The translations under genes and the position numbers were made by a program. Shown here one piece after another: positions 27,574-43,341 of a stretch of DNA of 64,000 nucleotides (position 1 is the first letter of the stretch; each line of letters begins with the position of its first letter). The notes under the pieces were generated by a model. It was not told where the DNA came from. It made no database searches and worked only from the letters and a program-made list of their open reading frames with translations. The DNA is from Aphrocallistes beatrix. Lineage: Eukaryota; Porifera; Hexactinellida; Sceptrulophora; Aphrocallistidae. The stretch spans positions 3,485,934 to 3,549,933 of the forward strand of contig OY725494.1 of assembly GCA_963281255.1 (NCBI GenBank), written 5' to 3'.

Positions 27574-28567
27574 CTTGCAGCACTGTCAATTGTGTTCTAA
27601 AAGAGATAAAGAATCAAGGAACGATTATCTAAATTCAAATATATAATTGCTAAAAAAAAGAAGCAAACCTCTCAGGATTTTCTTACGAGTGGAACAAGTG
27701 GTGAAAAATCGAAGGAAGAAAAAATAGCTCAACATCTGGACAGAGATTAAATGTGCTGGTATTCTGTTGAAGTGTGGTAGCATAAGAACATTGAATATAT
27801 CTGTCATATATTATCGCTTCCTAGGATGTGTTGATCAATCATGTAAATAGATAGCAATACAATCGTGTATTGAAGCTGAGACAAAGAAATTATTCCGACT
27901 TAAAATAAACCAATGAGTAGAATGTATACTCTAAGGGTCCGAATAAACGGGCCTCGCGCTTATAATCTATGGATTATATACAATGGGACGGAGCTAATAC
28001 GTATATGGAATGCTAAAAAGGCGCATACCGACATTTCGTGACACAAGTGTCGTGTAAGAAATGTCGGTATTCCCTAAAGAGGGCCAGGACCTGATCACTA
28101 TTAGCGATGCTAAGGTCGTGGCCTGACCACAGCCCTTGAAATGTCTTATTGGCCATGCACAACAGAATCTCTCTCGTATTAGATTTGAATCCTTGGTTGT
28201 ACAAAATAATCCCTCAAGATTAGAAACCCATGGATCAACAGCACCATAAGGGTCAAGAAGTCTAAGAAATCTATGCAACAACTCTAGTAAACACAGGACA
28301 TAATGACAAACTCGATATTTTCAACATTCTCCAACCATTGATTCCAAAATCTCACTACGCTATATTCAAGATGATGAACGTCACTGTTTATAGCGAGTAA
28401 CTGAATAATGCCAGGAATCTCGTTTAATAATAAATTCAACATATTACAGCCACCATACCAAATTAACAGCGTCATAATACATGCTTACAAATTAAATTTT
28501 GTAATCAGTATAACATATCCGGTATAATTATTTAATTATGATATAGTCACTCCATCATGACGCGACG

Positions 28568-28612
<45 letters not shown>

Positions 28613-29170: not shown

Positions 29171-32100
29171 TCACTTTTGAGAAGATTTCGAGTAGCAGAA
29201 GGTACAAACTCCTTCAGGGAGACAGCTTTTGTGGTAGGAGTGACCTAAATAGAAAGAAGATATTGAATTTTTCGTACATATTCGTAAAATTTAATACTGA
29301 ACTCTATTGATAATGATTGATATGGTGAGCACCTACCACAGGAGAGCATCAGGGTATTATCTGATGAGAGTGGTAGTGAATAATCGCCCAGGCAGCCTTG
29401 ACACTGAAATCTAAACGAACAGTTTCGAGTTATAAACCAGAAGTGTGAACAATTCTCACTTCATAAATACTCACTCATCCTGCTTGAGTCTGATGCCCCA
29501 CTGATAACTACAAGTTTCTAGTGTCTGTACATCTGGTAGAAGCTAAGGCGACAATATATTAACAGACAAACTAAACCTATCCAGTGAACAGAAGTCAGTT
29601 GTACCTCGCTGGAAAGCTGTTTGTCTTGAGATAAGAACTAGAGAGAGAGAACATGAGTATTCTAAATACTTCACACATAGTTATAGGATTTCTAATCAAC
29701 ATTTCAAGATCTGATCATAAAGCTTACTTGAACTGGGATTGCATTCGGCTTCTGTTTCCACAACTCCTCGTCCAACCGTTCATGCAAATTAAATGCTATC
29801 TTACTGAAGTAGTACAACTTTATAAACGTTGAAATTATTAGACAGTAAGATTGTGATCAAAACCCAACTTACCCTTTCTGTTGTTCCATGTTAGCGAATT
29901 GAACTAAATTCAGGAACAGCTCGTAAGGGAACCATGACTTGATGCTAGTAGTTTTCTCCAACTCTTGGATCACATCATTCAGGATCTCAGCTGCAGAGAG
30001 ACAGCCTAGACTCCTCACAGCCAGCCTGATGATGCTAGAGAGGAAGTCTCGCGCCTGCTCATACTTATCCATTTTTTCAAAATCTTCAGAGTATAGGCAT
30101 AAGAAGGTGTGTAGTGTGAGTGTCCAGTCGGATGGAGTTCCAGGGTAGCCTCCTTAAGATCAATTGTTATTCAGATAAATTCAGTTAGAAATCTGAGATA
30201 TAAAATGCTGGGAATTTTATATTTGTTTATCCGAAATGATTGAAGAACTGGCAAGTCAAATGGCTATAAAATGGCAGGTTAGTCTACAAAGTTCAAAAAT
30301 CTGAGCGAAATTATCACACCTCTATGAAATAATTGATAATTGTCTTACAATTATTTTATAATTATTTTAGAACCACTTTATAGATATTTTGAAATCATTA
30401 TATAATAATTATAAAATAATAAGCTTGTGAGTTTAAAGAGGAATCGAAGAAATCAGTTGAGTGCAACAATTCTCTATAGATATAAATTAACACACCCCAT
30501 GCAAGTTTAGGATGCTCTATCAAGCTGATATCTCCAAGACAAAGGAGGAGATGTGTTGCTTTCGTTCTGTTTCCGATTTCCATCAGACTTGAGATCATTC
30601 CAAACCAGAAACTACAATTTAAAAATATATTCACTGAAATATAGATTGTTAATTAATCGTATATGCACTAGTACTTGACATTCAATAACTTATTGAATGA
30701 CCTATATATTAAAGAAAAAATATAACAAAGATACCCTAGATCAATGCAAAACACATTATTCGCCGAAGACTTGACTAAATTTTAAAAGGAGCTGGTACAA
30801 ACCCTGAAAGCTTTACCGTAAGTTAAGATGTCCATGTACAAGCTCAGCATTTCAATCAATTAAATTTAAATTAATATTATTATCTCTTCAAATAAAAAGT
30901 AAGATGGACCATGAAGATGAACAAGTATCACAAACTACCACGCACTCACAGACCTACTAACGTGGACGATAATCAGTGGAACGAATATCGAACCGGAGAC
31001 AACGATTAGTTCAGACAAAAACTCAAATTCGAGCATATTTAGTGATTGAATCAGGAGTTGCCTATTTTTTGTGTGCATATTCTAAACTAATCAAACCAAT
31101 CTAAACTAGTTACGCACAACAAAACTGGGACTGAATCTAGAAAATTTAGGGAAAAATTTAAAACAAAATAAAAATAATTATTATACAATTATTATATAAT
31201 AATTATATAATAATTATATAATTATTATATAATTATTATATAATTATTATACAATTATTATATAATAATTATATAATAATTATATAATTATTATATAATT
31301 ATTATATAATTATTATACAATTATTATATAATTATTATACAATTATTATATAATTATTATATAAAGTATTTGTTTACTTTTGTTTACAATAGATACATAA
31401 AGTAAACAAAGACAAAAATAGACTAGAAACTAGCTTCCAACGGTTGACATGGGGTTTTTATAGGTGTAGATTTCGAAAATCATATTTTCAGATCAATATG
31501 ATAAATTATTGGTTTACTTTTGTTTACAATAGATATATAAAGTAAACAAATTACAAAAATAGGCTAGATACAAGCTTCCAACGGTTGGCAAGGGGTTTTC
31601 AGGGGTGTAGATTTTGAATATCAGATTTTCAAGTAAATTTGAAGATTAATTTGTTTACTTTTGTTTACAATAGATACATAAAGTAAAAAGTTCCAAAATA
31701 GGCTAGAGACTAGCTTCCAACGGTTGACATGAGGTTTTCAGGGGTGTAGATTTCGAATATCATATTTTCGAGTAAATTTGATGTTTTGTTTACTTTTGTT
31801 TAAACAAGATATATAAAGTAAACAAATTACAAAAATAGGCTAGAAGCTGGCTTCCAACGGGGGTTGACATGGGGTTTTCAGGGGTGTAGATTTATAATAT
31901 TATATTTTCGGATTCATACGAGAAATTATTCGTGAAATTTTGTTTACAATATTTATATAAAGTAAAAAAATTCCCAAATAGGTTAGATTGAGTAACTCTA
32001 GGCGTCCGCAGGGCGACTCTGCGAACACGCAGTGTCCGCAAGCAAGCGAAGAGTGTTTGTTTATTATATAATGATTATACAATTATTATATAATTATGAT

Positions 32101-35100
32101 ATAATTATTTTACAATAATTTTCTCAAAATATAGATAGGGAGGCACTCATTTCAGAAGTTGGCCACTATACATACCGGGTGATCCATAAAAAACAGGCCC
32201 ATAATAATTTTTCTCGCCACCTAACTAAGGATTTTATTCTAGTCAAGTTATTTCCTTAAAGAATGGCAGAGGCAACTCATGTGAAGGCATGCAAACCAAA
32301 TTGGAAGTTGGAGCACCGTGTATTCTGTGTGGAATTCTACTTCAAGCATGGCTCATTTAAGAAGGTCAATGAGTTATTTCATGTAAAGTTTGAGACAGCT
32401 TCATCGCCCTGTAAGAGCGTGATACAAGCTTGGATTGACCATTTCAGGACTTATGGGACAGTGCTAAACCTAAATGTGAAGGATGACAAGCGCCCGACTC
32501 ATTCTGGAAGACCTAGGAAGAGAACTGCCGAACTTATTGATGATATTAGGGAGGCAGTTGGAAACAGCCCAAAAAGGTCAATCCGGAAGAGGAGCCAGAC
32601 TCTTGGTATCACACCTACCACTCTCTGGAGAGTCCTGAAACATGATCTGCGTGTTTTTCCCTATAGAATACGGACTAGTCAGAAGCTAACTAATGCAGAT
32701 ATCGCCAAGAGGCTGACTATGGCTGTGAAATTGGTCGCCAAAGTAGAATGTTGTGACACATTTCTTGGACTTCTTTTCACCTCGGATGAGGCTCATTTTG
32801 ACCTGGATGGGAAGGTCAACAGTAAGAACAATGTATTTTGGGGTACTCAAAAGCCTTCAGAGATATCCCAGAAGCCATTACACTCCGAAAGATGTACTGT
32901 GTGGGCTGCTCTTAGCGCGAGAGGCATCATCGGACCCATTTTCATCGAAGAAAATGGTCGAAATGTGACTGTGACAAAAGAACGCTATGTCAAGGTGCTA
33001 GAGGAATTTTGGAAGGAAGTGGAATCACTTTACCCTTCACTATTACCCAGGCTATGGTTCCAGCAGGATGGAGCACCTGCACACACTTCAATAATGGCTA
33101 GGGAATGGCTCAAAAATCATTTCGGAACCCGAGTCATCAGTCGACTGACTCCCTTTGAGTGGGCCCCTCACAGTCCGGATCTGAGCCCCCCGGATTTCTA
33201 TCTTTGGGGTTATTTGAAGGATAAAGTATATGCTAACAAGCCCCAAAACATCGTAGAACTCAAAGACTCCATCAAGGATGAAAGATTCCGAGGTCAGTTT
33301 GCAAGGATGTAATGAACAATTTTGTTGTAAGACTGAGAAAATGTATGGAATTAAATGGGGAACATCTAGAACATATGCTATAACTTACGCATTTTTTGGA
33401 TTATAGCTTTTTCCTTTTGATATATTATTAAAAAGTGTTTTAACTTTATTATTGTTGAATTGTCAAATTTATTTCATAACACTGATTGATTTGTGGTAAT
33501 TTTGATTAGGGGCCTGTTTTTTTTGAAACACCCTGTATATGTATATGTATAGTCGGCAAACTAAAAACATACAAGTCGTATACTTGATGCCTAAGAAAGT
33601 GCTCATGCGTAATAACTAACTTTAACTTGATTGTGTTAAATAACACTTACCAGTGTTGTTCAAAATGAGGCAGGCATTCACTACATAAATTTGAATCTAC
33701 CAGTTTCAGGTTAAAGGTTAACTCCCACACATGTTTGTATCTCCAATCAATTTGGTGAGAGAGAGGTCTAATGGGTATAAGAAGAATCAAATGTAGTCCA
33801 CGATATGTAGTGCCAAGTTAATACTTGTATAACAAACTTTGGGATATCTAAATTGTCCTCAACAGTCAGGTTCTTAGCAGAGGGGAGGAAGGGAAGAGAG
33901 ACACAAATCCAAATGATGAAAGTTTGTAGGTCAGCAGAGAATACATTTCTCAACATTCTAAAATAGAAATATGCATTAGATATGTATTTAAGCAAATAAG
34001 AGTATGTATATATAAGCACTACCTCTGTTTAGAGCAATCAGCTTCTGCAGATAAAATCAACTTCTCCATATAGTCAAGAAACATCTTGACTAGCGGATGT
34101 GAACCCAACTTCTGAGGAGACTCGATCTGACCAAATAGAATAGTCGAAATTTCCCATGGGAGGAGAAAGGGGAACTTGCTCACACAATATATTATCTCTC
34201 CCCCTTGTACGACCCTAGAGAGTCCCATAACGCAATTGCATTAAAATATACATCCAAAATAAGTGTTAGTCATACCGTTTTAGGTCCAAGGGAAAAAAAC
34301 GAGATTCAAAATCGAGAATTGGAGAGGCAGTTTCTGAGTCAGACTTTGTATCAATGGTTTGAAAATCTAGAAAATAATTATAACATTTTATAAAGCGATG
34401 TCTTTAAAATATTTATTTAGTCCAGCATTTTTGCTAATGAGTTTTAACAAAATCAGTGCTTACCTGCCAATCCTTTAGTATATAATGCATATGCTTTGTT
34501 CTTATCAACATTCTGTTGTTCTGTGAGGTAACCTCTAACTTCTGCAAGCGGCAGAAATAAAGAAAGGAGATAGAAGAAGTTGTACGGGTGAGGTGAGTGT
34601 GAAGTGGTGAGGGGGTTAGGAAACAAGATGGGGAGCCAAGCGCCAGCTAGCATAGCGTAGGTAGCCAGTTGGTGCAGGAGAGGGGAACGAGATGAACTAG
34701 AGAGGAAGGTGAGGCAGGAAATAGCGTGTGAAGCTGGGAAGGAGGAAGCCGGCACGGAAGATATTAAACGGGCAAACTCAGTCAACCAAGTTGAGAGTTT
34801 GGAGATGAAAGCGAGATCGACTTCTTCAGACTCTAACTCGTTCCTACATCAGACAGTACATCAGTTCACAATATTCTATGTCAATTCGTAAATAGACTTA
34901 CCAAATTAGCTGTGAAGAATTTAAGAATTCTTCCATTTTTTTGCTGCTATTTCTAGAATCTTCCAAAGTATCAGCCTGTGTCCTGAGAGGAGAGGCGATA
35001 AATGCCCCCAGGGACTCCTGTTGAGTAGAGAGGTCAGTCTGGCGGATAGCAAGGGGGGCAGGGGCAGGGGCAGGGGGACTAGGGAGGTTATCAGTAGACA

Positions 35101-38100
35101 GTTGTTTGGAATCTCTCCTATTCTTTTTCTTGCGTTCAGACCTAAAATGATGTTAAAGAGAGAAGTATCAAATACAAACGCGCATAAGAGTAGAAGCAGT
35201 GTTTACCTAGAAATGTGTTCTGAGATGGGCTGTTCTTCATGTTGCGATTGCGAGCGGTTCATCCCTTTGAGAAGAGGCAGTTCAGAAGTAAGAGGAACAG
35301 GTGGATCAGAACTTTCATTCTGGAATATATCGTTAGAGAAGAGATCTACTCCAGAGGTTGGCTTATCAGCTGTTTCAATCTCACTCATAGAGTGATACTT
35401 GCTTCCCTTGTTCCCCCCAGGCCGCTCCTTCTTGCTCCTCTTCCTCACCAGCTTAGGACTCCAGCTGGAGGACAAGTCTCCCTCCTTCGAGCTCTGTGTC
35501 ATCTTCACACGGGACGCGGATGGGAAAGGTAGATTACTTTCATCGAATGATGTGTCCGGAATCGCATCTGAATCAACCTCATTATTTGTCTCTGCTAATT
35601 GGTTAACTAGAACAGCTGCTGTGTCATCTTCATGGCATGTTGTCATATCTTCATTTGGTAAGCTCGTCACTTCCTGCATTAGGTTCTCATCACTGGAGCT
35701 CTGAGATTCTATGTTACGATCTTTTTGTGGAATAAAATCCTCAGTAACATTCGAACTAACATTTTCAGAAAAAATTGCTGCGGCATTCATTTCATTCAAA
35801 TCTTCGCTAGCTGCTTCATCTTGAGATTGACTGGTGCTATTAGTCGGGTCTATTTCCTCTGACGAGGGAATGAATTGAGGAGAGTCTGGAAAGGCTAAAG
35901 AGACATCAGTGGGGTTGACAGTAATAGGGTCAGCTGTTGGCTTCTGTTGAAATATCTCAACATCAGAAGAATTTAGCTCTGACAGAGCCTCAAGGCCGGA
36001 TACCGACTAAATAATGTAATTTATTACAGATAGTATTCATCATATTATTAAACAGTCAGATATGAATTACCTCTGATTTGTTCGTGGGCTGTGGTGCTGA
36101 CTCGTTAACATCAGTAACATCGTTACATTCGGTTTCTGGTTTAATAACATTCTCAAATTCCACTTTTATCTGCGAAATAAAATGGTACTTATTACAATTC
36201 CGGATATTTGAGTGAATTAACTTATCCTAGTTGACGCACCTGGCTAATCTGAGAGTGCAGCTGGAGCTGAGAGAGAAACTTAAGAAGCTGTGCGTAGTGG
36301 AAGAATGACAGACAACGTATTTGGATCGGATCTCCAAAACTTATCCAAATCTCGTTGTCATGCACAAGCACATCCTGGATGTCTACCAAAACAGTTAATG
36401 AGGAATATTACATTCAGCATTCGCTCCCTACGTATCATAAATCGTTTAGAATCATACTCGGAAGGCTTCTGCCCATATATAGTAATAACAGCATTGTAAT
36501 AAATATATGCTAACCATATTGGAGCTAATTTGAACATTTTACCATTATGATATGGTCCCATTAACAAAATGAACAATAAAGAGAATTCAGTTAAAATAAT
36601 CAACGATTCTTTGGTGGTTCATGTGAATCAGGGCTAAGAACGGGAGTAGGCTTCTTGTCTTCAGCTTGATTTTGGATTATAACATCTTCTTCCTGATCCG
36701 AATCGGTTCCAATAGTATCTATTCCATCTCCATGCACATTTCCCTGAAATTTAATTCCTTCTCCATCGCTAGGCTCGATTTCATCAACCTCCTCTTCCGA
36801 GTCGACCGGAATACCAACAGGCATGGTTTCAGATTTTTTATCAAATCTGACATTAGGAGGTTGAGTCGGGACTGCTAAAGCTGGAGGAGAGGTGGACACA
36901 GACCTGAAGAAGTAGAGTTGGAACCCCACAGCTAGCAGCACGTGCAGTAGAATGATGGCAGCGATCACGCCGTAAGCTATCCGCTGCTTATCCTTCTTAA
37001 TGACCGGCCAGAAGGAGATAGCCAGCACTCCCCCAGACAGAGCGGCTGCTGACATAGTGATCGCCCACTGAACGCTGGCGAAGCGTATGAGTAAGGTCCA
37101 CAGAATGGAAACGGGGATGTAGATGGAGAGGGAGTACCCGTAGAGTGTGATCATGCTAAACAGAGAATGGGTGTTGGCCTGACCCACCCGCCAAATCAAA
37201 ACGGCCCAGAGTACAATGGGGACGACCCAGGTATAGATGAATAGGATAGAAGCAAGTGTGGTTACCTCTTGAAACTGAAACGTCCATACGGACAGGCCTT
37301 GCGTACCAAAGTACTTTGCAATGTTTCCAGACATGGAGGCCGTCACGATGAGAGTTATGCAGATCCAGAGGGGGCCGTATAAGTCTGGATTACTGGACAC
37401 CATATCGATGAACCCCTTCCGATTAGGAATCATAGAACTGAGCACACGGTGACCTACGTCTGAAGTGGTTACGTTAAAAAACTGCTGGTAGTAATCGAGC
37501 TTCCAGAAAACTTTACTCTGTTGGGAGGAATCGTTAGAACTCTCTCCTTCCTTATCTTTAGCAGGATTAGCTTCAATGTCTGCGAATGAGTCATTCATCT
37601 TAAGCAAGTGGGAGATGAGTTTCTTATAGGACTGAGCTAATTTGTTAGAACAGAGAGGTATTCAATTTAGTTCTCATAAATAGTCAAGTAAGAATTTATT
37701 GCAATAGTCTAAGGGTGAAGAAATAATTTACATACTACGAAGGCACTCTAAAATTAAAGAACTATGCAATGCAGATAACTCTCTGTCAGCCATTGCGCCA
37801 CTCTTAATTATTTTCAAGGTAAAATATGGTCTGGCTTACCTTCAAGAAGACAGTGTTGAGTGATTGTGTTCCTAGACAGATTCAGGATGTACAGGGCGTT
37901 AGCGTTCCAAGCGAGCATGTGGTTTCTAAAGAATATTTTAAATTTAAAGATGTGCAATGAAAGAAGAGATGATTCACGATAGGAAATTATAAATAGAAAA
38001 CCATTTCTGAGATTTTGCCAAACTGCTGTCCTGTGAGCTGTTTCCTGGATTCTCAAAATTATAACTTCGCTAAGACTTTATGGTTAGGACAGGTATTTTA

Positions 38101-41100
38101 GAAGGAAAGTTTTTAGAAACTAAGAGAGTCGAATATTCTAGAATTTGTAAGCGGCGAGGTTAAACTTAATTAATGGTATTATTAATTACATTTCTATACT
38201 TAATTGATGGATATACAAGACTTGCTACAACAGATGCAAAAATAGAATACTACGAATATATCTATCGATCTAGTACCATATTCAGCTACACTCACTAACT
38301 CACATGAACTAACTTGATAACTCGAATTCTTTTGAAAGCATTTGGGATGGCCGCATCAGCTAGAACATCTAGTTCATCTCCCTCCGAATTGGTTGATTCA
38401 AAGCTAAGTTACAATAGAAAACAATTCGTGGTTAGTATACAAACAACTACGAGCAAAATAAAATAATTTCAACTCACTTTATACCGTATATTGGAGTAGT
38501 TGCAATTCCCACCAAAAGATCTCTCAGTTTATGCGTAATCTCTACCTTACCATCAAGAGAGGCCTAGTGCATAGAATGCAGGACATGATTGCAATAATGC
38601 AGTACTTAATTGTCTGGGGAGAGTACACTCATACACACCTTCCAAATTCTGGCTTTAGGTCTCGCTGATAGAATCTTTGTGACTTGAGGATGTGTCGTTG
38701 TGACTCGATAGAAACAGGCTCCATACAGACCATCTCTATGTACAGAAGAATATAAATACGTTAGAAATGAACTGTCACATCAAGTTACTACCTCTCTTGA
38801 GAGCCAACTGAAACAACTTCCTCTCTAAACAAGAAAATACAAATAAATGTACTAATGAGAAGAGTAAAATGATATAAGAGTTGCAACTCACCTCTTCAGA
38901 TTCATCACTGCAGACTTATGCCTGCAAGATACAAGCAGATGATCATTCTCATAATCCTAAAAAAAGTCAAATACTAATTCCTGCACTCTACTTGCCAATT
39001 AGGCTTTTAATCAAACATTTTTTAAAACGATAAAAGGTAATGAGCACTCAAATCGAAGCGATTAATTCGAACTGATGGAAACGCACTGTGAGTACACGAA
39101 ACTTCTGAGGCTATCCTTGCCCTATATACTGCTACTCCTCCTACTGGCAAATTCCGTCCCAGCAACCAGAGCACAAGAAGGGAATGCAGATGCCAGAGGA
39201 CTCATCAACACGCTTAAAGATGGGGATTTCCATTTGGTACTAAATCGATACAAGAAACGGATAATTTTGATACTCTGCACGCCTATCTTCTTATGTTGTG
39301 CGTGTTGTGTCCTGTTCTGTACGCTCCCGTGCATTTGCGTTGTCATGATTGGGTGTGGATGCGCAGGAGGGATAGATGCATTCAGAACTAAGAGAAGGCC
39401 GGCTGAACCACCTACTAACAATATAGTCGTGATCGAGAAGATCCAGGGAAGAGAAAGTCAAGTACCTGAGGAACTAACTGGACCGAGACAATTCCTCTAT
39501 TCACCTAACACCTACTTCTCGAACCAGGCACAGTATGCAGAGCATAGGCCTGGTCTCGGCAGTTATCCCAAACTCACTGTGACGCATGGTACAATTGCGA
39601 ATAATGAGAATGTCCTTACAGAGGAACACACATCTGAGAGAAGGAATAGCTTGCCGAGTGATGACAAGGACAAAGATAATGCGAGGTACAACTTCCTGTC
39701 ATTGGATGACCTGAATCAGATCGAGACTCGAGCTAAAACTCTAGGCAGAGTCAAGTTCGGTCAATCTAATGTTTGAACAGCATCTGTCATGAAATTGTAT
39801 ATTTTTGATGATCTGTAGGTGAAATAACGAAAAAATTAGTTTATCTGGAAAATAGAAGCATTGTGTTTTCAAAGAGTATTATTATCACGTCATTGAAAAG
39901 TGTTAATTATGGTTGCAACAAAGATTATTAAACAATGTCTACTATACAATACCAAGTTGAAATAAATCTAAATACCGAGTGTTTTGTTTTCTTTGCATGT
40001 TGCAGGGAGTGGGTCATGTCCTAATGTCTATAATGTGCATTTAAGTTAGCTAAACATGTTCAATGTACTTATTAATGATATTTAAATATTAATTTAAAAT
40101 GTCTCTAATTTAATCTCAGCATTCCATTCATCTACCCTGGCTAGCTTTACTGTATGTATAAAACTAGACCTTGACGGATAAAATGAACTCTGCACAATAT
40201 CCAGATAGAGAAGGGTATGAAATATATTTTGGTTAGAAAGTTGTTTTCTTTACATCTCATTTTGTCGATATTGCTCGTCCAAGGCCTCAGGATAGACACA
40301 GAAGATAAAGCTGGAATTCGTGAGAGGAGAGATGCTCCAACAGACCTCACAAGGCGAGTAGACGCGTTTCTAGGTACGCAGCGAGGCCAAATAATCCTGG
40401 CGGTAGTGCTGGGAGTATCCGGCTATCTCTGTTGCGTCATAGTGCCTTGCTGTCTGGGTGCAGCCTCCATACTCCTGCTGCATTGCATGAACCTGCTGGA
40501 ATATCCTGATACCCCAAAGCTCAACAAGGGCAGATTAGACCTAGATAAAGTCCACAGGAAGAGAGAGCAAGGAGAATGTACCGCCAGAGAAACAGGCATT
40601 CCAGAGAATCAAAGGGAATGCACGGCAATTCAAGACTCTTTAGCTGATCACCCAGGACCACCTATAATCCTTAACCAAGTTGCATCATCCGAACAGGTCA
40701 ACTGCCCAGTAAACAGTCAGATCCTCTACCCATATCTCCCCTACCAGTTCACCTACCTCACCTACGGAGCTCATGCTACTAATAGCCCCGTCTACATGAA
40801 TCCAGCCACCTGCAACCTCCCCAATGACAACATGGATCCTGTCTCCTCTAACGTTAGAGATGAGAAGGCTGAGGTTGTGTATGAGAATTATTGAGATATC
40901 GTACAGTACAGTGATTGGTGTGTATTTATTTGTTTAGGAATTATTCATCTGATTGAGCGCTTGTCTCAGATTACTGATTGTAAAGTGGATTGAAATCGAC
41001 TATTAGTAAGTAATGATTAAACTCAATGATTGCAAATGTCAACACTTAATATATCAAATTTATCCAGACTTTACACGACACATTAACTAAACGGAAAGTA

Positions 41101-43341
41101 TTCGATTCTTGAAAGACATATAGTTCCATGTGAATATACATTTTGAGAAGACATGGAAACAGCAATAAGCGATTGCTATCCGAAGTTGATTTTGAATCGA
41201 GGTCTATGGACTGAGTTAGAGCTGGGCATAACATTAACTAACTTTTGAGTTAAATATGAAGATATGAAGAGAACTAAGATCTTGATTTCGAAATGTACTA
41301 CCAGCTCATCACGATCCTCTTAGTCGTCACTCTCATCCCGGGATTCAGTGTCAGAACTGTGCAAGGAGAGGAAGCTAGGGAGAGCGAGCTAATCGATGTG
41401 AGCAAAAGACTGGAGAGATCATTTGAACAGAACAGAAATGGTAGTCTCAGACCGAACATCATCCACAATGGAATCGGAAAAGTGGAAAGAGACATCATAA
41501 TCTCAGTTTTAATCGTGGCTTGTGTGACACCATTGCTATGTGGGATCTTGATGGTTGCATGTCAGCTCGCTACCCAGATGAAAAAAAAGCACATCCGGAA
41601 GTTTTGTAAGAAGCAAGGGCTAGCAAGGAGAGATTGCAACCAGTCAGAAGGCATCAGTAAGATGGGACCGCTGCAGCTCCATAACTCCTTCCCCGTCTAC
41701 ATCAACGGACTAACTCGGGAGGAGATGGAGTGCTACATGAATCTGACCGCTCTAGCAAGGGAGCAAGGAATGCGTGCGAATGGCAGCATCGGGACGAATA
41801 ACCCTGAGACAGGACAGATAGAGGGGAAAGAAAGTGTTCCTTTGACGCCGCCACATATCAGAATAAAGCCAAGGATTGCTATAGTATACCCCAGTCCCAC
41901 TCCAAGTTACGTTAATACTAATGGAGTATTCTCACCAACTGAAAGGAATACAAGAAATCTATATCCACCGCTTCCGTACAATTTCAGAAATGATGCACCT
42001 ATCTTTGAGATGCAACCCAAAAACTCCACTCCTAGGTCTCCCCTCAGTACGCCTCCACAGGCTAAGCACAGGCCGTCCATACGAGAGACGCCTGATCGCG
42101 CTGTGAAAAAGAAGAAAATAGATCTACTGAGACAGATGACGATGTCTCCACCGCCCAGTTACACTTCAAAGGAAGTGATAAAGAGCATGCCCTGCCTCTC
42201 GTTTCCTTATAAGGGCAGTCCCTGTAGCAACTTGAATGTGAGCAAGAGTAGCGTAGTGAAACAGAAGGACAGGAGTGCGAGTGAGAGCGACCTCTCTACT
42301 TAAGTAAATTATATAAACTCTATTTAGATTCATTTCTCTTCACATTAGTTAGTTGTATATTCCTCTAAGTGAGGACAATTAGGGAACAGATTCGATTCGT
42401 GTGCATATAATGTGAAATTAATTATATTACATCATTTCTTGATTAGCTTACCAATTGTACGACAGGAGTTTCACAGATTAGAATTATTCCTTGTTTCCTC
42501 AGTCTAATTCCGCCTCCCGAGGAAAGAACGGTTCTTGGCAGCTACACAAATAAAAGATGAAAAATTAAATTTCGAAATTCCAAATAAGAACAATGTAGAC
42601 AAGCAGAAGCAAATTAAACTGATAAGAGATTCAATTATGCATGAATTAACGCTTGAAACGAGTACAACTAACCACTCCGGGCATGTGTACGACGGAGACC
42701 TTGCCAGTATTGTCTCCAATGAATAACTGCTGTCCTTTGTTGTCCCATACAATATCACTGATATGACAGCCTCTGTGTTCTGACACTTCCAGAACTTTCT
42801 AGAAATATAAGTCCAGGCTGATTGATACAAGTACAATACTATAAATGAACACTCACCTTAGAATGCTGTAAGTGAGTAACATTGAGCTCCCAAACAATAA
42901 TAACTCCACATCTAAATATGAGAGAATTCAATGGGTACCAGTACGTATTTATGGACAAGCACCCTCACATAATCATTACTCACCCAGAACCGATCGCTAG
43001 GTACTTGTCATCAGGAGAGAATCTGGCTATCTGGATATCTCGTTCCTATGGATACAACGTTGAACAGTAGAAGAGCACGAGATCATATTACACAGTAGCA
43101 TGAGCAAGCAGCTGACCTTATTAGGGATGAAGTTGATGTAATTGAGTGGGTGTTTGATGAACACGTACACTCCGCCCGTGTTAGCTCCCAGGACTAACAG
43201 GTGGCTGGAAACTGCGAAACAGGAGTACTTGATGCGGTTTGAAGCTCTGATTGGTAGGTACAGCTTTTTACCGAAATCTCGCACATCAACCGGAAGGTAT
43301 AACTCCTCAGCCAAATAGATATCTCCACCTGATGCAGCCAT
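29171..43341 (-). CDS. HPS5: HPS5 (BLOC-2 subunit) with C-terminal RING-H2 finger
   Basis: About 26 exons and roughly 1,280 residues. Exons: 43117-43341, 42984-43045, 42857-42911, 42673-42798, 42452-42541, 38892-38956, 38792-38824, 38639-38735, 38478-38563, ~38306-38403, 37840-37925, 36240-36382, 36071-36169, 35207-36006, 34902-35141, 34464-34843, 34023-34203, ~33825-33957, 33651-33767, 30496-30611, 29873-30152, 29728-29803, 29605-29637, 29475-29542, 29337-29410, 29171-29244. The N-terminal beta-propeller (GANTGGVYVF, RFSPDDKYLAIGSG, FIGDNTGK, ERDGLYGACF, DIQDVLVHDNEIW) and C-terminal solenoid (KFPFLLPWEISTILF, FWFGMISSLMEIG, DISLIEHP) follow human HPS5. BLOC-2 directs cargo to lysosome-related organelles. 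Two junctions (38306/37925 and 33825/33767) do not resolve in frame by eye. The end carries C-x2-C ... CGHSYHKSC ... C-x2-C. Introns host other genes and a transposon. Confidence 0.88.
31162..31366. repeat. AT-only tandem repeat (ATAATTAT type)
   Basis: About 200 bp of near-pure A/T in phased repeats of ATTATATAATT with occasional C. It lies within an HPS5 intron, next to the satellite described below, and a short stretch of the same pattern returns at 32062-32115. Confidence 0.9.
31370..31985. repeat. ~140-bp tandem satellite, about 4.5 units
   Basis: Units begin near 31371, 31511, 31650, 31787 and 31935 with TTTGTTTACTTTTGTTTACA, followed by ATAAAGTAAAC, then CTTCCAACGGTTG and GGGTGTAGATTT. 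Copies differ by scattered substitutions and small indels; the last is truncated. It is intronic to HPS5. Confidence 0.9.
31998..32062. repeat. GC-rich dispersed hairpin repeat, copy A
   Basis: A GC-rich island in AT-rich DNA: TAGGCG, GGCGACTCTGCG, ACACGCAGTGT, then GCGAAGAGTGTTTG. The same string of blocks recurs at 54299-54383. Internal inverted repeats (GCGAACACG with AGTGTCCGC) would fold. It looks like a short dispersed element, perhaps a structured non-autonomous transposon or SINE tail. Confidence 0.7.
32175..33535 (+). mobile_element. Full-length Tc1/mariner-superfamily transposon
   Basis: A 1.36-kb element in an HPS5 intron. Terminal inverted repeats: the left end starts CCGGGTGATCC and continues AAAAAACAGGCCC; the right end, read inward, starts CAGGGTGTTTC and continues AAAAAACAGGCCC. 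Each end is flanked by TA, the expected target duplication. It contains one transposase gene. The termini are not identical (several mismatches), so it is not brand new. Confidence 0.92.
32263..33312 (+). CDS. Tc1/mariner-type transposase, C-terminally frameshifted
   Basis: 349 residues as read. An N-terminal helix-turn-helix region (about residues 15-125, with SGRPRKRT between two HTH-like parts) binds the terminal repeats. The DDE/D catalytic core has FTSDEAHF (first Asp), FQQDGAPAHT (second Asp) and PHSPDLSPPDFYLWG (third Asp, 36 residues after the second). The frame ends at FRGQFARM, but a different frame from about 33285 to the stop at 33381-33383 continues with the family's usual end (RLRKC ... 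NGEHLEHML). This copy is therefore probably inactivated by a single-base loss near 33280-33290. The nearest named family was not determined. Confidence 0.9.
   Translation: MAEATHVKACKPNWKLEHRVFCVEFYFKHGSFKKVNELFHVKFETASSPCKSVIQAWIDHFRTYGTVLNLNVKDDKRPTHSGRPRKRTAELIDDIREAVGNSPKRSIRKRSQTLGITPTTLWRVLKHDLRVFPYRIRTSQKLTNADIAKRLTMAVKLVAKVECCDTFLGLLFTSDEAHFDLDGKVNSKNNVFWGTQKPSEISQKPLHSERCTVWAALSARGIIGPIFIEENGRNVTVTKERYVKVLEEFWKEVESLYPSLLPRLWFQQDGAPAHTSIMAREWLKNHFGTRVISRLTPFEWAPHSPDLSPPDFYLWGYLKDKVYANKPQNIVELKDSIKDERFRGQFARM
36600..37607 (-). CDS. YIPF1/YIPF2-type Golgi membrane protein
   Basis: 335 residues, intronless. A cytoplasmic N-terminus (KVFWKLDYYQQFFNVTTSDV, typical of YIPF1/2) is followed by the Yip1 domain with five membrane segments (about residues 75-235) including MSGNIAKYFG and the Tyr/Gly-rich YGYSLSIYIPVSI. 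The C-terminus adds an acidic tail of about 100 residues, longer than in the human proteins. YIPF1/2 cycle in the Golgi, pair with other YIPF proteins and bind Rab GTPases. The gene lies in the HPS5 intron between the exons at 36240-36382 and 37840-37925, on the same strand as its host, so it needs its own promoter and terminator there. Confidence 0.93.
   Translation of the reverse strand: MLKMNDSFADIEANPAKDKEGESSNDSSQQSKVFWKLDYYQQFFNVTTSDVGHRVLSSMIPNRKGFIDMVSSNPDLYGPLWICITLIVTASMSGNIAKYFGTQGLSVWTFQFQEVTTLASILFIYTWVVPIVLWAVLIWRVGQANTHSLFSMITLYGYSLSIYIPVSILWTLLIRFASVQWAITMSAAALSGGVLAISFWPVIKKDKQRIAYGVIAAIILLHVLLAVGFQLYFFRSVSTSPPALAVPTQPPNVRFDKKSETMPVGIPVDSEEEVDEIEPSDGEGIKFQGNVHGDGIDTIGTDSDQEEDVIIQNQAEDKKPTPVLSPDSHEPPKNR
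39075..39776 (+). CDS. Orphan single-pass TM protein A (Cys-rich TM)
   Basis: 233 residues, intronless, not recognised. A signal peptide (about residues 10-33) is followed by a short ectodomain of about 25 residues and a long Cys-rich hydrophobic span (about residues 60-100; CCACCVLFCTLPC, then GCGCAGG). The rest is a polar cytoplasmic tail of about 130 residues without a known domain. The tail contains FLYSPNTYFS, weakly like the LYPxLPYxF motif of its two neighbours. It is on the strand opposite HPS5, within the ~3.5-kb HPS5 intron 38957-42451. Cys clusters at the membrane could be palmitoylated. Shisa-like adaptors have comparable architecture, but I see no Shisa Cys pattern, so this is only an analogy. 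Confidence 0.75.
   Translation: METHCEYTKLLRLSLPYILLLLLLANSVPATRAQEGNADARGLINTLKDGDFHLVLNRYKKRIILILCTPIFLCCACCVLFCTLPCICVVMIGCGCAGGIDAFRTKRRPAEPPTNNIVVIEKIQGRESQVPEELTGPRQFLYSPNTYFSNQAQYAEHRPGLGSYPKLTVTHGTIANNENVLTEEHTSERRNSLPSDDKDKDNARYNFLSLDDLNQIETRAKTLGRVKFGQSNV
40217..40894 (+). CDS. Orphan single-pass TM protein B
   Basis: 225 residues, intronless, unrecognised. Signal-like segment at residues 8-24, ectodomain of about 35 residues with a dibasic ERRD site, TM with Cys pairs (about residues 56-90; GYLCCVIVPCC), then a ~130-residue tail. The tail has the motif LYPYLPYQF, nearly identical to LYPPLPYNF in gene C, which argues that B and C are paralogues. It ends in VVYENY, a possible tyrosine-based signal. 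It lies in the same HPS5 intron and orientation as A and C, with spacers of about 400 bp. No function can be assigned. Confidence 0.75.
   Translation: MKYILVRKLFSLHLILSILLVQGLRIDTEDKAGIRERRDAPTDLTRRVDAFLGTQRGQIILAVVLGVSGYLCCVIVPCCLGAASILLLHCMNLLEYPDTPKLNKGRLDLDKVHRKREQGECTARETGIPENQRECTAIQDSLADHPGPPIILNQVASSEQVNCPVNSQILYPYLPYQFTYLTYGAHATNSPVYMNPATCNLPNDNMDPVSSNVRDEKAEVVYENY
41293..42303 (+). CDS. Orphan single-pass TM protein C with PPxY tail
   Basis: 336 residues, intronless, unrecognised. Signal peptide (residues 1-25), a ~45-residue ectodomain with an N-glycosylation site (NGS), TM (about residues 73-95, with two Cys) and a basic stop-transfer KKKH. The ~235-residue tail is Pro-rich with LYPPLPYNF and PPPSYT (a PPxY motif, a typical WW-domain ligand for Nedd4-type E3 ligases), and a basic KKKK. 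The signal-TM-tail layout and the LYPxLPYxF motif link it to gene B. It is the last of three same-strand genes inside one HPS5 intron; its stop is about 150 bp from the HPS5 exon at 42452. Confidence 0.78.
   Translation: MYYQLITILLVVTLIPGFSVRTVQGEEARESELIDVSKRLERSFEQNRNGSLRPNIIHNGIGKVERDIIISVLIVACVTPLLCGILMVACQLATQMKKKHIRKFCKKQGLARRDCNQSEGISKMGPLQLHNSFPVYINGLTREEMECYMNLTALAREQGMRANGSIGTNNPETGQIEGKESVPLTPPHIRIKPRIAIVYPSPTPSYVNTNGVFSPTERNTRNLYPPLPYNFRNDAPIFEMQPKNSTPRSPLSTPPQAKHRPSIRETPDRAVKKKKIDLLRQMTMSPPPSYTSKEVIKSMPCLSFPYKGSPCSNLNVSKSSVVKQKDRSASESDLST

What the first reader, a model, noticed from the sequence alone, without database searches (positions are those of the whole stretch)
29171..29410. 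HPS5 ends in a RING-H2 zinc finger absent from human HPS5
The last two exons, spliced in phase, read C-x2-C, 17 residues, C-x1-H-x2-H-x2-C, 5 residues, C-x2-C (CQGC ... CGHSYHKSC ... CTFC), the RING-H2 spacing. Human HPS5, as I know it, ends around the equivalent of LWKQKP in exon 29728-29803, about 80 residues earlier. HOPS/CORVET subunits (VPS8, VPS11, VPS18, VPS41) share propeller-solenoid-RING architecture. A RING on HPS5 would therefore tie BLOC-2 to that family and suggest an ancestral feature lost in vertebrates, or an E3 or tethering role. That evolutionary reading is inference.
Basis: partly seen in the sequence, partly recalled or inferred. Interest (0 to 1): 0.82.

Follow-up and report, generated by a model that had tools for sequence, protein, structure and literature searches.

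The report
Tether-type zinc finger ends HPS5
In this animal, probably a sponge, the organelle-building protein HPS5 ends in a small zinc-binding domain that human HPS5 appears to lack but that related membrane-tethering proteins carry at the same place, which fits a shared origin for these machines.

Summary
Window 43341-29171, minus strand, reads as a 27-exon HPS5 gene: 26 of 26 introns GT-AG, 1305 residues, with an HPS5 propeller (E 1.3e-73), a solenoid match above cut-off and a C-terminal RING. Of 60,640 in-phase GT-AG joins tested in the window, 1 gives a RING pattern: this one.

As a 71-residue piece its best Pfam family is the Vps8 RING (29.7 bits, cut-off 27.3). At E <= 1e-4, 0 of 6 ordinary RINGs of this genome reach that family, and 0 of 4 Vps-type ones. 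In the full-length scan it scores 23.9, below cut-off. Pairwise comparison does not favour Vps RINGs.

Most likely this is an inherited, structural RING that helps assemble BLOC-2, not a ubiquitin ligase. Kinship of BLOC-2 with HOPS/CORVET seems already published (More et al. 2024, not held; content recalled). Whether an HPS5 RING is in print I could not settle. No orthologues or transcripts were available.

The parts
29171..43341 (-). HPS5 gene, 27 coding exons, 1305 aa
   Evidence: Gene model with 26 of 26 GT-AG introns and no internal stop; Beta-prop_HPS5 248.5 bits and TPR_HPS5 29.9 bits, both above cut-off
36240..43341 (-). exons 1-12: N-terminal HPS5 beta-propeller (residues 25-356)
   Evidence: PF23756 E 1.3e-73
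29873..34214 (-). exons 18-22: solenoid matched by TPR_HPS5 (residues 966-1120, profile 168-315 of 385)
   Evidence: PF23758 29.9 bits, cut-off 27
29728..29803 (-). exon 23, holds ELWKQKP where the recalled human HPS5 seems to end
29605..29637 (-). exon 24, 33 bases, phase 0-0, linker; weak donor gtacaa
29475..29542 (-). exon 25, linker leading into the RING
29337..29410 (-). exon 26: first RING half, CQGC...LSC
29171..29244 (-). exon 27: second RING half, GHSYHKSC...CTFC, and stop codon
29081..29086 (-). AATAAA, likely polyadenylation signal of HPS5

Best explanation
This animal's HPS5 is a propeller-solenoid-RING protein built like VPS8 and VPS41. The C-terminal RING most likely binds two zinc ions and caps the solenoid, serving as a docking surface that fixes HPS5 in BLOC-2 (to HPS3, HPS6 or a further subunit), as the VPS41 RING is recruited through the VPS18 RING in human HOPS. 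It is most likely inherited from the common ancestor of HPS5 and the Vps tether subunits and missing from human HPS5 by loss. Shown here: the reading frame, the RING ligands, the profile match. Inferred: zinc binding, docking role, ancestry, loss.
For: Full HPS5 frame with a RING at its end. Best Pfam family of the isolated tail is zf_RING_Vps8, E 5.8e-7, 29.7 bits, over cut-off; its best generic RING match is E 3.6e-5. In the same kind of scan of ten other RINGs of this genome, the 6 ordinary ones are best matched by generic RING families at E 1.6e-9 or better and 0 of 6 reach zf_RING_Vps8 at E <= 1e-4, while the best generic matches of VPS8-like, VPS41, VPS11 and VPS18 RINGs are E 1.2e-6 to 9.9e-5, in the range of HPS5. 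HPS5, VPS41 and VPS18 share C-x-F-C at the last ligand pair; the VPS8-like RING, VPS11 and 10 of 10 ordinary RINGs read C-P-x-C (noticed after the fact). VPS41 joins human HOPS by a RING-RING contact with VPS18, and yeast Vps41 has no such zinc finger, so such a RING can be absent in a lineage (PMC5651818, passages). Propeller-solenoid-RING is a shared plan of CORVET, HOPS, SEA and alpha-COP, and alpha-COP lost zinc ligands in many organisms (PMC4678705, parts 1-2 of 3).
Against: In the full-length scan the RING scores 23.9 bits, below the 27.3 cut-off. 0 of 4 Vps-type RINGs of this genome reach zf_RING_Vps8 at E <= 1e-4, the VPS8-like one included (it scores 19.0 and 23.1 bits). The control is biased: 4 of its 6 ordinary RINGs were fetched as top zf-RING_2 matches; the other 2 came from the Vps8-RING search. 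VPS11 passes the cut-off of zf-C3H2C3, a general zinc-finger family (28.9 bits). Pairwise comparison, with Cys and His held in place, ranks L001, L004, L011 and L003 above VPS41 (z 3.8, 2.76, 2.57, 2.36 against 2.2) and the VPS8-like RING last of 14 (-0.18). The five-residue loop between ligands 6 and 7 is shorter than in 14 of 14 other RINGs read (8-63). No orthologues, transcripts or structure model.
Confidence: 0.57

Rival explanations
1. The RING was gained in this lineage, for example by fusion with a downstream RING gene or exon shuffling from an ordinary RING-H2 gene, and its likeness to the Vps RINGs is convergence.
For: Pairwise scores do not favour the Vps RINGs; the recalled human protein lacks the RING; the domain sits on its own two exons behind a separate linker.
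Against: Best profile is the Vps8 RING and generic families match weakly, unlike the 6 ordinary RINGs scanned. No second copy of the tail was found in the genome: 3 of 3 matches at E <= 10 are this locus itself.
Confidence: 0.22
2. The RING makes HPS5 a ubiquitin ligase acting on endosomal cargo or on BLOC-2 partners.
For: RING-H2 ligand set is complete; Vps11 and Vps18, C-terminal RING subunits of HOPS/CORVET, are reported ligases (PMC6478910, passages).
Against: Three usual E2-contact features (recalled) are absent: hydrophobic residue before ligand 2 (G here; I or V in 10 of 10 ordinary RINGs), loop Trp (none here; present in 8 of 10), Pro after ligand 7 (T here; P in 10 of 10). They are not absolute: this genome's VPS18 RING lacks all three as well, and Vps18 is a reported ligase.
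Confidence: 0.1
3. Annotation error: HPS5 stops near exon 23 and the RING exons are noise or part of another transcript.
For: No RNA evidence; the donor of intron 24 is weaker than all 22 training donors.
Against: Phase-consistent GT-AG joins, coding-like codon use, no other in-frame Met before the RING, AATAAA just past the RING stop, RING pattern unique among 60,640 joins.
Confidence: 0.06

Closest known systems
VPS8 (CORVET subunit) and its C-terminal RING, Pfam zf_RING_Vps8
   Same: Propeller, solenoid, C-terminal RING (recalled plan; PMC4678705 lists Vps8); best profile match of the isolated tail, 29.7 bits
   Different: HPS5 has its own propeller and solenoid families; loop between ligands 6 and 7 is 5 residues, 16 in this genome's VPS8-like protein, which is a separate gene (L009)
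VPS41 (HOPS subunit), zf-RING_Vps41
   Same: RING near the extreme C-terminus; shared C.H.YH..CL and C-x-F-C
   Different: Loop 11 against 5 residues; HPS5 tail has only 17.6 bits to zf-RING_Vps41, cut-off 30.3
Human HPS5 (BLOC-2)
   Same: Propeller and solenoid families; the recalled human sequence covers TPR_HPS5 1-385 at 632.9 bits
alpha-COP C-terminal RING-like domain
   Same: Propeller-solenoid protein of a coat with a RING whose ligands were lost in many organisms (PMC4678705)
   Different: Different complex; first metal site substituted in many organisms there, all eight ligands present here

Membership tests
HPS5 (BLOC-2 subunit) | HPS5 beta-propeller | tested here: met
   PF23756 248.5 bits, cut-off 34. 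The other strong place in the genome, on C10, is TECPR2-like with tectonin domains. Three further places (C11:3703004, C11:4180671, C9:219705-220361) pass the cut-off only with neighbours, 34.4-38.7 bits, and were not followed up
HPS5 (BLOC-2 subunit) | HPS5 solenoid (TPR_HPS5) | tested here: met
   PF23758 29.9 bits, cut-off 27, only profile 168-315 of 385
HPS5 (BLOC-2 subunit) | forms a complex with HPS3 and HPS6 | not testable with these tools
   HPS3_N homologue found (41.3 bits, cut-off 26.2); HPS3_C not found; HPS6 search uninformative, nothing rang anywhere
RING-H2 finger | eight ligands with RING spacing | tested here: met
   C-x2-C-x17-C-x1-H-x2-H-x2-C-x5-C-x2-C
RING-H2 finger | two zinc ions, cross-brace fold | not testable with these tools
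Vps8-type RING (PF23412) | score over the curated cut-off | tested here: inconclusive
   29.7 bits as a 71-residue piece, 23.9 in the full protein; cut-off 27.3. This genome's VPS8-like protein does not pass it either
RING E3 ligase | E2-contact residues | tested here: not met
   0 of 3 usual features in HPS5 (features recalled)
RING E3 ligase | ubiquitin transfer | not testable with these tools
   needs biochemistry
HOPS/CORVET subunit | orthology to a Vps subunit | tested here: not met
   HPS5 propeller and solenoid families are the ones over cut-off; VPS41, VPS11 and VPS18 are separate genes over cut-off, and a VPS8-like gene is separate too but below every Vps8 cut-off

The most novel reading that the evidence does not exclude
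The HPS5 RING is the lost attachment point of an ancient third tether: in early-branching animals BLOC-2 docks by HPS5 onto the class C core (VPS18/VPS11 RINGs), as VPS41 does, so that BLOC-2 acts as, or exchanges with, a HOPS/CORVET accessory arm; vertebrates lost this when HPS5 lost its RING.
Probability: 0.1. Interest if true: 0.82.

Novelty: new variant of a known kind. Interest (0 to 1): 0.52.

Why it matters
BLOC-2 is the Hermansky-Pudlak complex whose exact mechanism of action is still said to await elucidation (PMC12493267, passages). A Vps-type RING on HPS5 gives a concrete, testable piece of HOPS/CORVET anatomy inside BLOC-2: which surface the domain docks on, and how the human complex does without it.

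Tried and rejected
Second HPS5: the Beta-prop_HPS5 match on C10 looked like a better HPS5, but two of its downstream frames carry tectonin domains, so it is TECPR2-like; the window gene keeps the HPS5 name.

VPS8 exons mis-spliced onto HPS5: rejected. A VPS8-like gene, VPS41, VPS11 and VPS18 each have a RING elsewhere (L009, L017, L036, L040). L009 is called VPS8-like by a weak Vps8-RING match, a clathrin-repeat match over cut-off and a sub-threshold TPR_Vps8 match; it passes no Vps8 cut-off.

RING on HPS3: none seen in the 736-aa frame that follows the HPS3_N frame, and no RING or half-RING pattern unspliced in six frames of L035. That this frame belongs to HPS3 is not tested; it matches no Pfam family at E <= 0.5.

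Solved structures: the 1305-aa protein hits 13 chains at E <= 10, all from WD40-type proteins, none HPS5; the tail hits 2 RING chains at E 0.36 and 1. Orthologues in prokaryote contigs (hoping for eukaryote contamination; residues 1-251 only): none. NCBIfam: 0 families for the tail.

Weak Vps propeller matches (Beta-prop_Vps41 15.8 bits in the window protein; Vps11, Vps41 and Vps8 in recalled human HPS5) are below cut-off and mixed with unrelated propellers that score as well or better; I give them no weight.

Pairwise RING comparison meant to show Vps kinship failed to do so (11 ordinary loci tried, L015 dropped because the pattern did not find its RING).

Three looked for HPS5 with RING, RING finger or zinc finger (11, 2 and 12 papers listed) and one for tether RING domains with BLOC-2 (13 listed). 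No title or abstract start describes a RING on HPS5, but I read only the passages named in the report. The two most relevant papers, More et al. 2024 (PNAS) and Thomason et al. 2024 (Current Biology), are not held, so I do not claim that the RING is unpublished.

Full report
WHAT IS THERE. The minus strand of the window from 43341 to 29171 reads as one gene of 27 coding exons with 26 of 26 introns GT-AG, giving 1305 residues without a stop (a first attempt had some wrong boundaries). Pfam finds the HPS5 beta-propeller at residues 25-356 (E 1.3e-73), the HPS5 solenoid at 966-1120 (29.9 bits, cut-off 27, profile 168-315 of 385) and a RING at 1260-1296.

IS IT HPS5? The genome has one other strong Beta-prop_HPS5 place, on contig C10. 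Two of its later frames match Tectonin and Hyd_WA, so it is a TECPR2-like gene. Three more places pass the cut-off only with their neighbours in the frame (34.4-38.7 bits, cut-off 34); I did not follow them. An exon-by-exon search for the HPS5 solenoid finds nothing anywhere, this gene included, so it says nothing on absence.

IS THE RING PART OF THE GENE? The tail exons join in phase. No in-frame Met lies between residue 1193 in exon 22 and the RING start at 1260, though one lies inside the RING at 1278. AATAAA lies just past the stop. Codon use of exons 24-27 is coding-like in frame (0.123) and not in the other frames; 1.55% of 2,000 stretches drawn from the introns, which include the nested genes and the transposon, score as high. 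Introns 23, 25 and 26 have sites within the range of the other 22; intron 24 has a donor weaker than all 22, but its 33-base exon can be skipped in frame. No transcripts were available, and this is the main gap.

IS IT MORE THAN CHANCE? Of 60,640 in-phase joins in the window (31,326 on plus, 29,314 on minus; introns 50-120 bases), 1 yields a RING pattern, this one; 9 of 2,000,000 shuffles of the tail do. Of 10 shuffled tails, 0 match a RING family at E <= 1; two of them give weak matches to other families.

WHAT KIND OF RING? The isolated 71-residue tail is best matched by zf_RING_Vps8 (E 5.8e-7, 29.7 bits, cut-off 27.3). In the whole protein it scores 23.9, below cut-off. As control I cut the same kind of piece from ten other RINGs of this genome, 6 of them ordinary (out of 10 ordinary ones read). 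The 6 are best matched by generic families at E 1.6e-9 or better and 0 of 6 reach zf_RING_Vps8 at 1e-4; the best generic matches of the four Vps-type RINGs lie at E 1.2e-6 (VPS11, over the cut-off of zf-C3H2C3) to 9.9e-5 (VPS18), and that of HPS5 at 3.6e-5. Two limits: 4 of the 6 ordinary RINGs had been fetched as top zf-RING_2 matches and so favour this outcome, the other 2 came from the Vps8-RING search; and 0 of 4 Vps-type RINGs, the VPS8-like one included, reach zf_RING_Vps8 at 1e-4. Direct pairwise scores with Cys and His held in place do not favour Vps RINGs: L001 z 3.8, L004 2.76, L011 2.57, L003 2.36, VPS41 2.2, VPS18 1.17, VPS11 1.16, VPS8-like -0.18, the last of 14. So the Vps character rests on the profile, on the place of the domain, and on a C-x-F-C last pair shared with VPS41 and VPS18, a feature I noticed after looking.

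HUMAN HPS5. No tool here holds it. BLAST aligns it to the window protein over about residues 968-1119 (E 4e-9, 27% identity); beyond that only a global MAFFT alignment places its end, FLWSQ, at the window's ELWKQ, with its last two residues displaced by the aligner. That leaves about 88 extra residues in the window protein.

SURROUNDINGS IN THE GENOME. VPS41 (L017), VPS11 (L036) and VPS18 (L040) are over their families' cut-offs and have their own RINGs; a VPS8-like gene (L009) passes no Vps8 cut-off. An HPS3 homologue exists (HPS3_N 41.3 bits); the 736-aa frame after it has no Pfam match and no RING pattern. HPS3_C was not found and the HPS6 search was uninformative. The genome has 19 homeodomain matches (24 candidates scored); I translated 16 of 19 and by eye see NK, Msx, POU, paired, LIM, Six and TALE types but no Hox type (class names recalled). 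That, with 100.5 Mb in 28 contigs, suggests a sponge; it is inference.

HOW IT LIKELY WORKS. Shown: frame, ligands, profile match. Inferred: two zinc ions, a rigid cap on the solenoid, and docking. The precedent is human HOPS, where the VPS18 RING recruits VPS41 through its RING, while VPS8 needs more than its RING and yeast Vps41 has no zinc finger (PMC5651818, passages). A ligase role is less likely: HPS5 lacks a hydrophobic residue before ligand 2, a loop Trp and a Pro after ligand 7, present in 10, 8 and 10 of 10 ordinary RINGs read (the meaning of these positions is recalled). Yet Vps11 and Vps18 are reported ligases (PMC6478910, passages) and this genome's VPS18 RING lacks all three features, so this is only a leaning.

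WHAT IS KNOWN. [quoted passage not shown] Kaur and Subramanian list propeller-solenoid-RING proteins in CORVET, HOPS, SEA and COPI and suggest a distant common origin; HPS5 is not among those they name in the two of three parts that I read (PMC4678705). [quoted passage not shown] More et al. 2024 and Thomason et al. 2024 are not held (titles seen); from recall, the first reports kinship of BLOC-2 with HOPS and CORVET and the second calls all BLOC-2 subunits proto-coatomer proteins. So the broad evolutionary tie is known; the specific RING on HPS5 may or may not be. My searches listed no paper whose title or abstract start describes it.

VERDICT. Real, more than chance, and best read as a tether-type structural RING at the end of HPS5, probably inherited and lost in the human line. 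It is a new variant of a known kind of protein. The evolutionary reading waits for an orthologue survey.

Noticed in passing
window 36600-37661, minus strand: Single open frame with a Yip1 domain (43.7 bits, cut-off 28.6) lying wholly inside HPS5 intron 11, on the same strand.
   Followed up: partly
window 39075-39776, 40217-40894, 41293-42303, plus strand: Three single open frames (233, 225 and 336 aa), each by eye with a signal-like start and one membrane segment, nested in HPS5 intron 5 on the opposite strand; they may be one small family, not tested.
   Followed up: no
window 32260-33312, plus strand: Open 350-aa transposase frame (DUF4817 over cut-off, DDE_3 28.1 bits just under its 28.6) inside HPS5 intron 20.
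   Followed up: partly
window about 31150-31400: Run of AT-rich TATAATAATTG-like units beside the transposon in intron 20 (seen).
   Followed up: no
L031 (G000 C10:4221500-4231400): TECPR2-like gene whose propeller matches Beta-prop_HPS5 and whose later frames carry tectonin domains: HPS5 and TECPR2 share a propeller type.
   Followed up: partly
G000: Only 19 homeodomain matches and, by eye, no Hox type among the 16 translated; suggests a sponge.
   Followed up: partly
L009 and L017: The VPS8-like and VPS41 RING matches lie in long open frames (1277 and 900 aa) while HPS5 is cut into 27 exons in the same genome.
   Followed up: no
window about 28547-28610: Simple (GTT)n run downstream of HPS5.
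   Followed up: no
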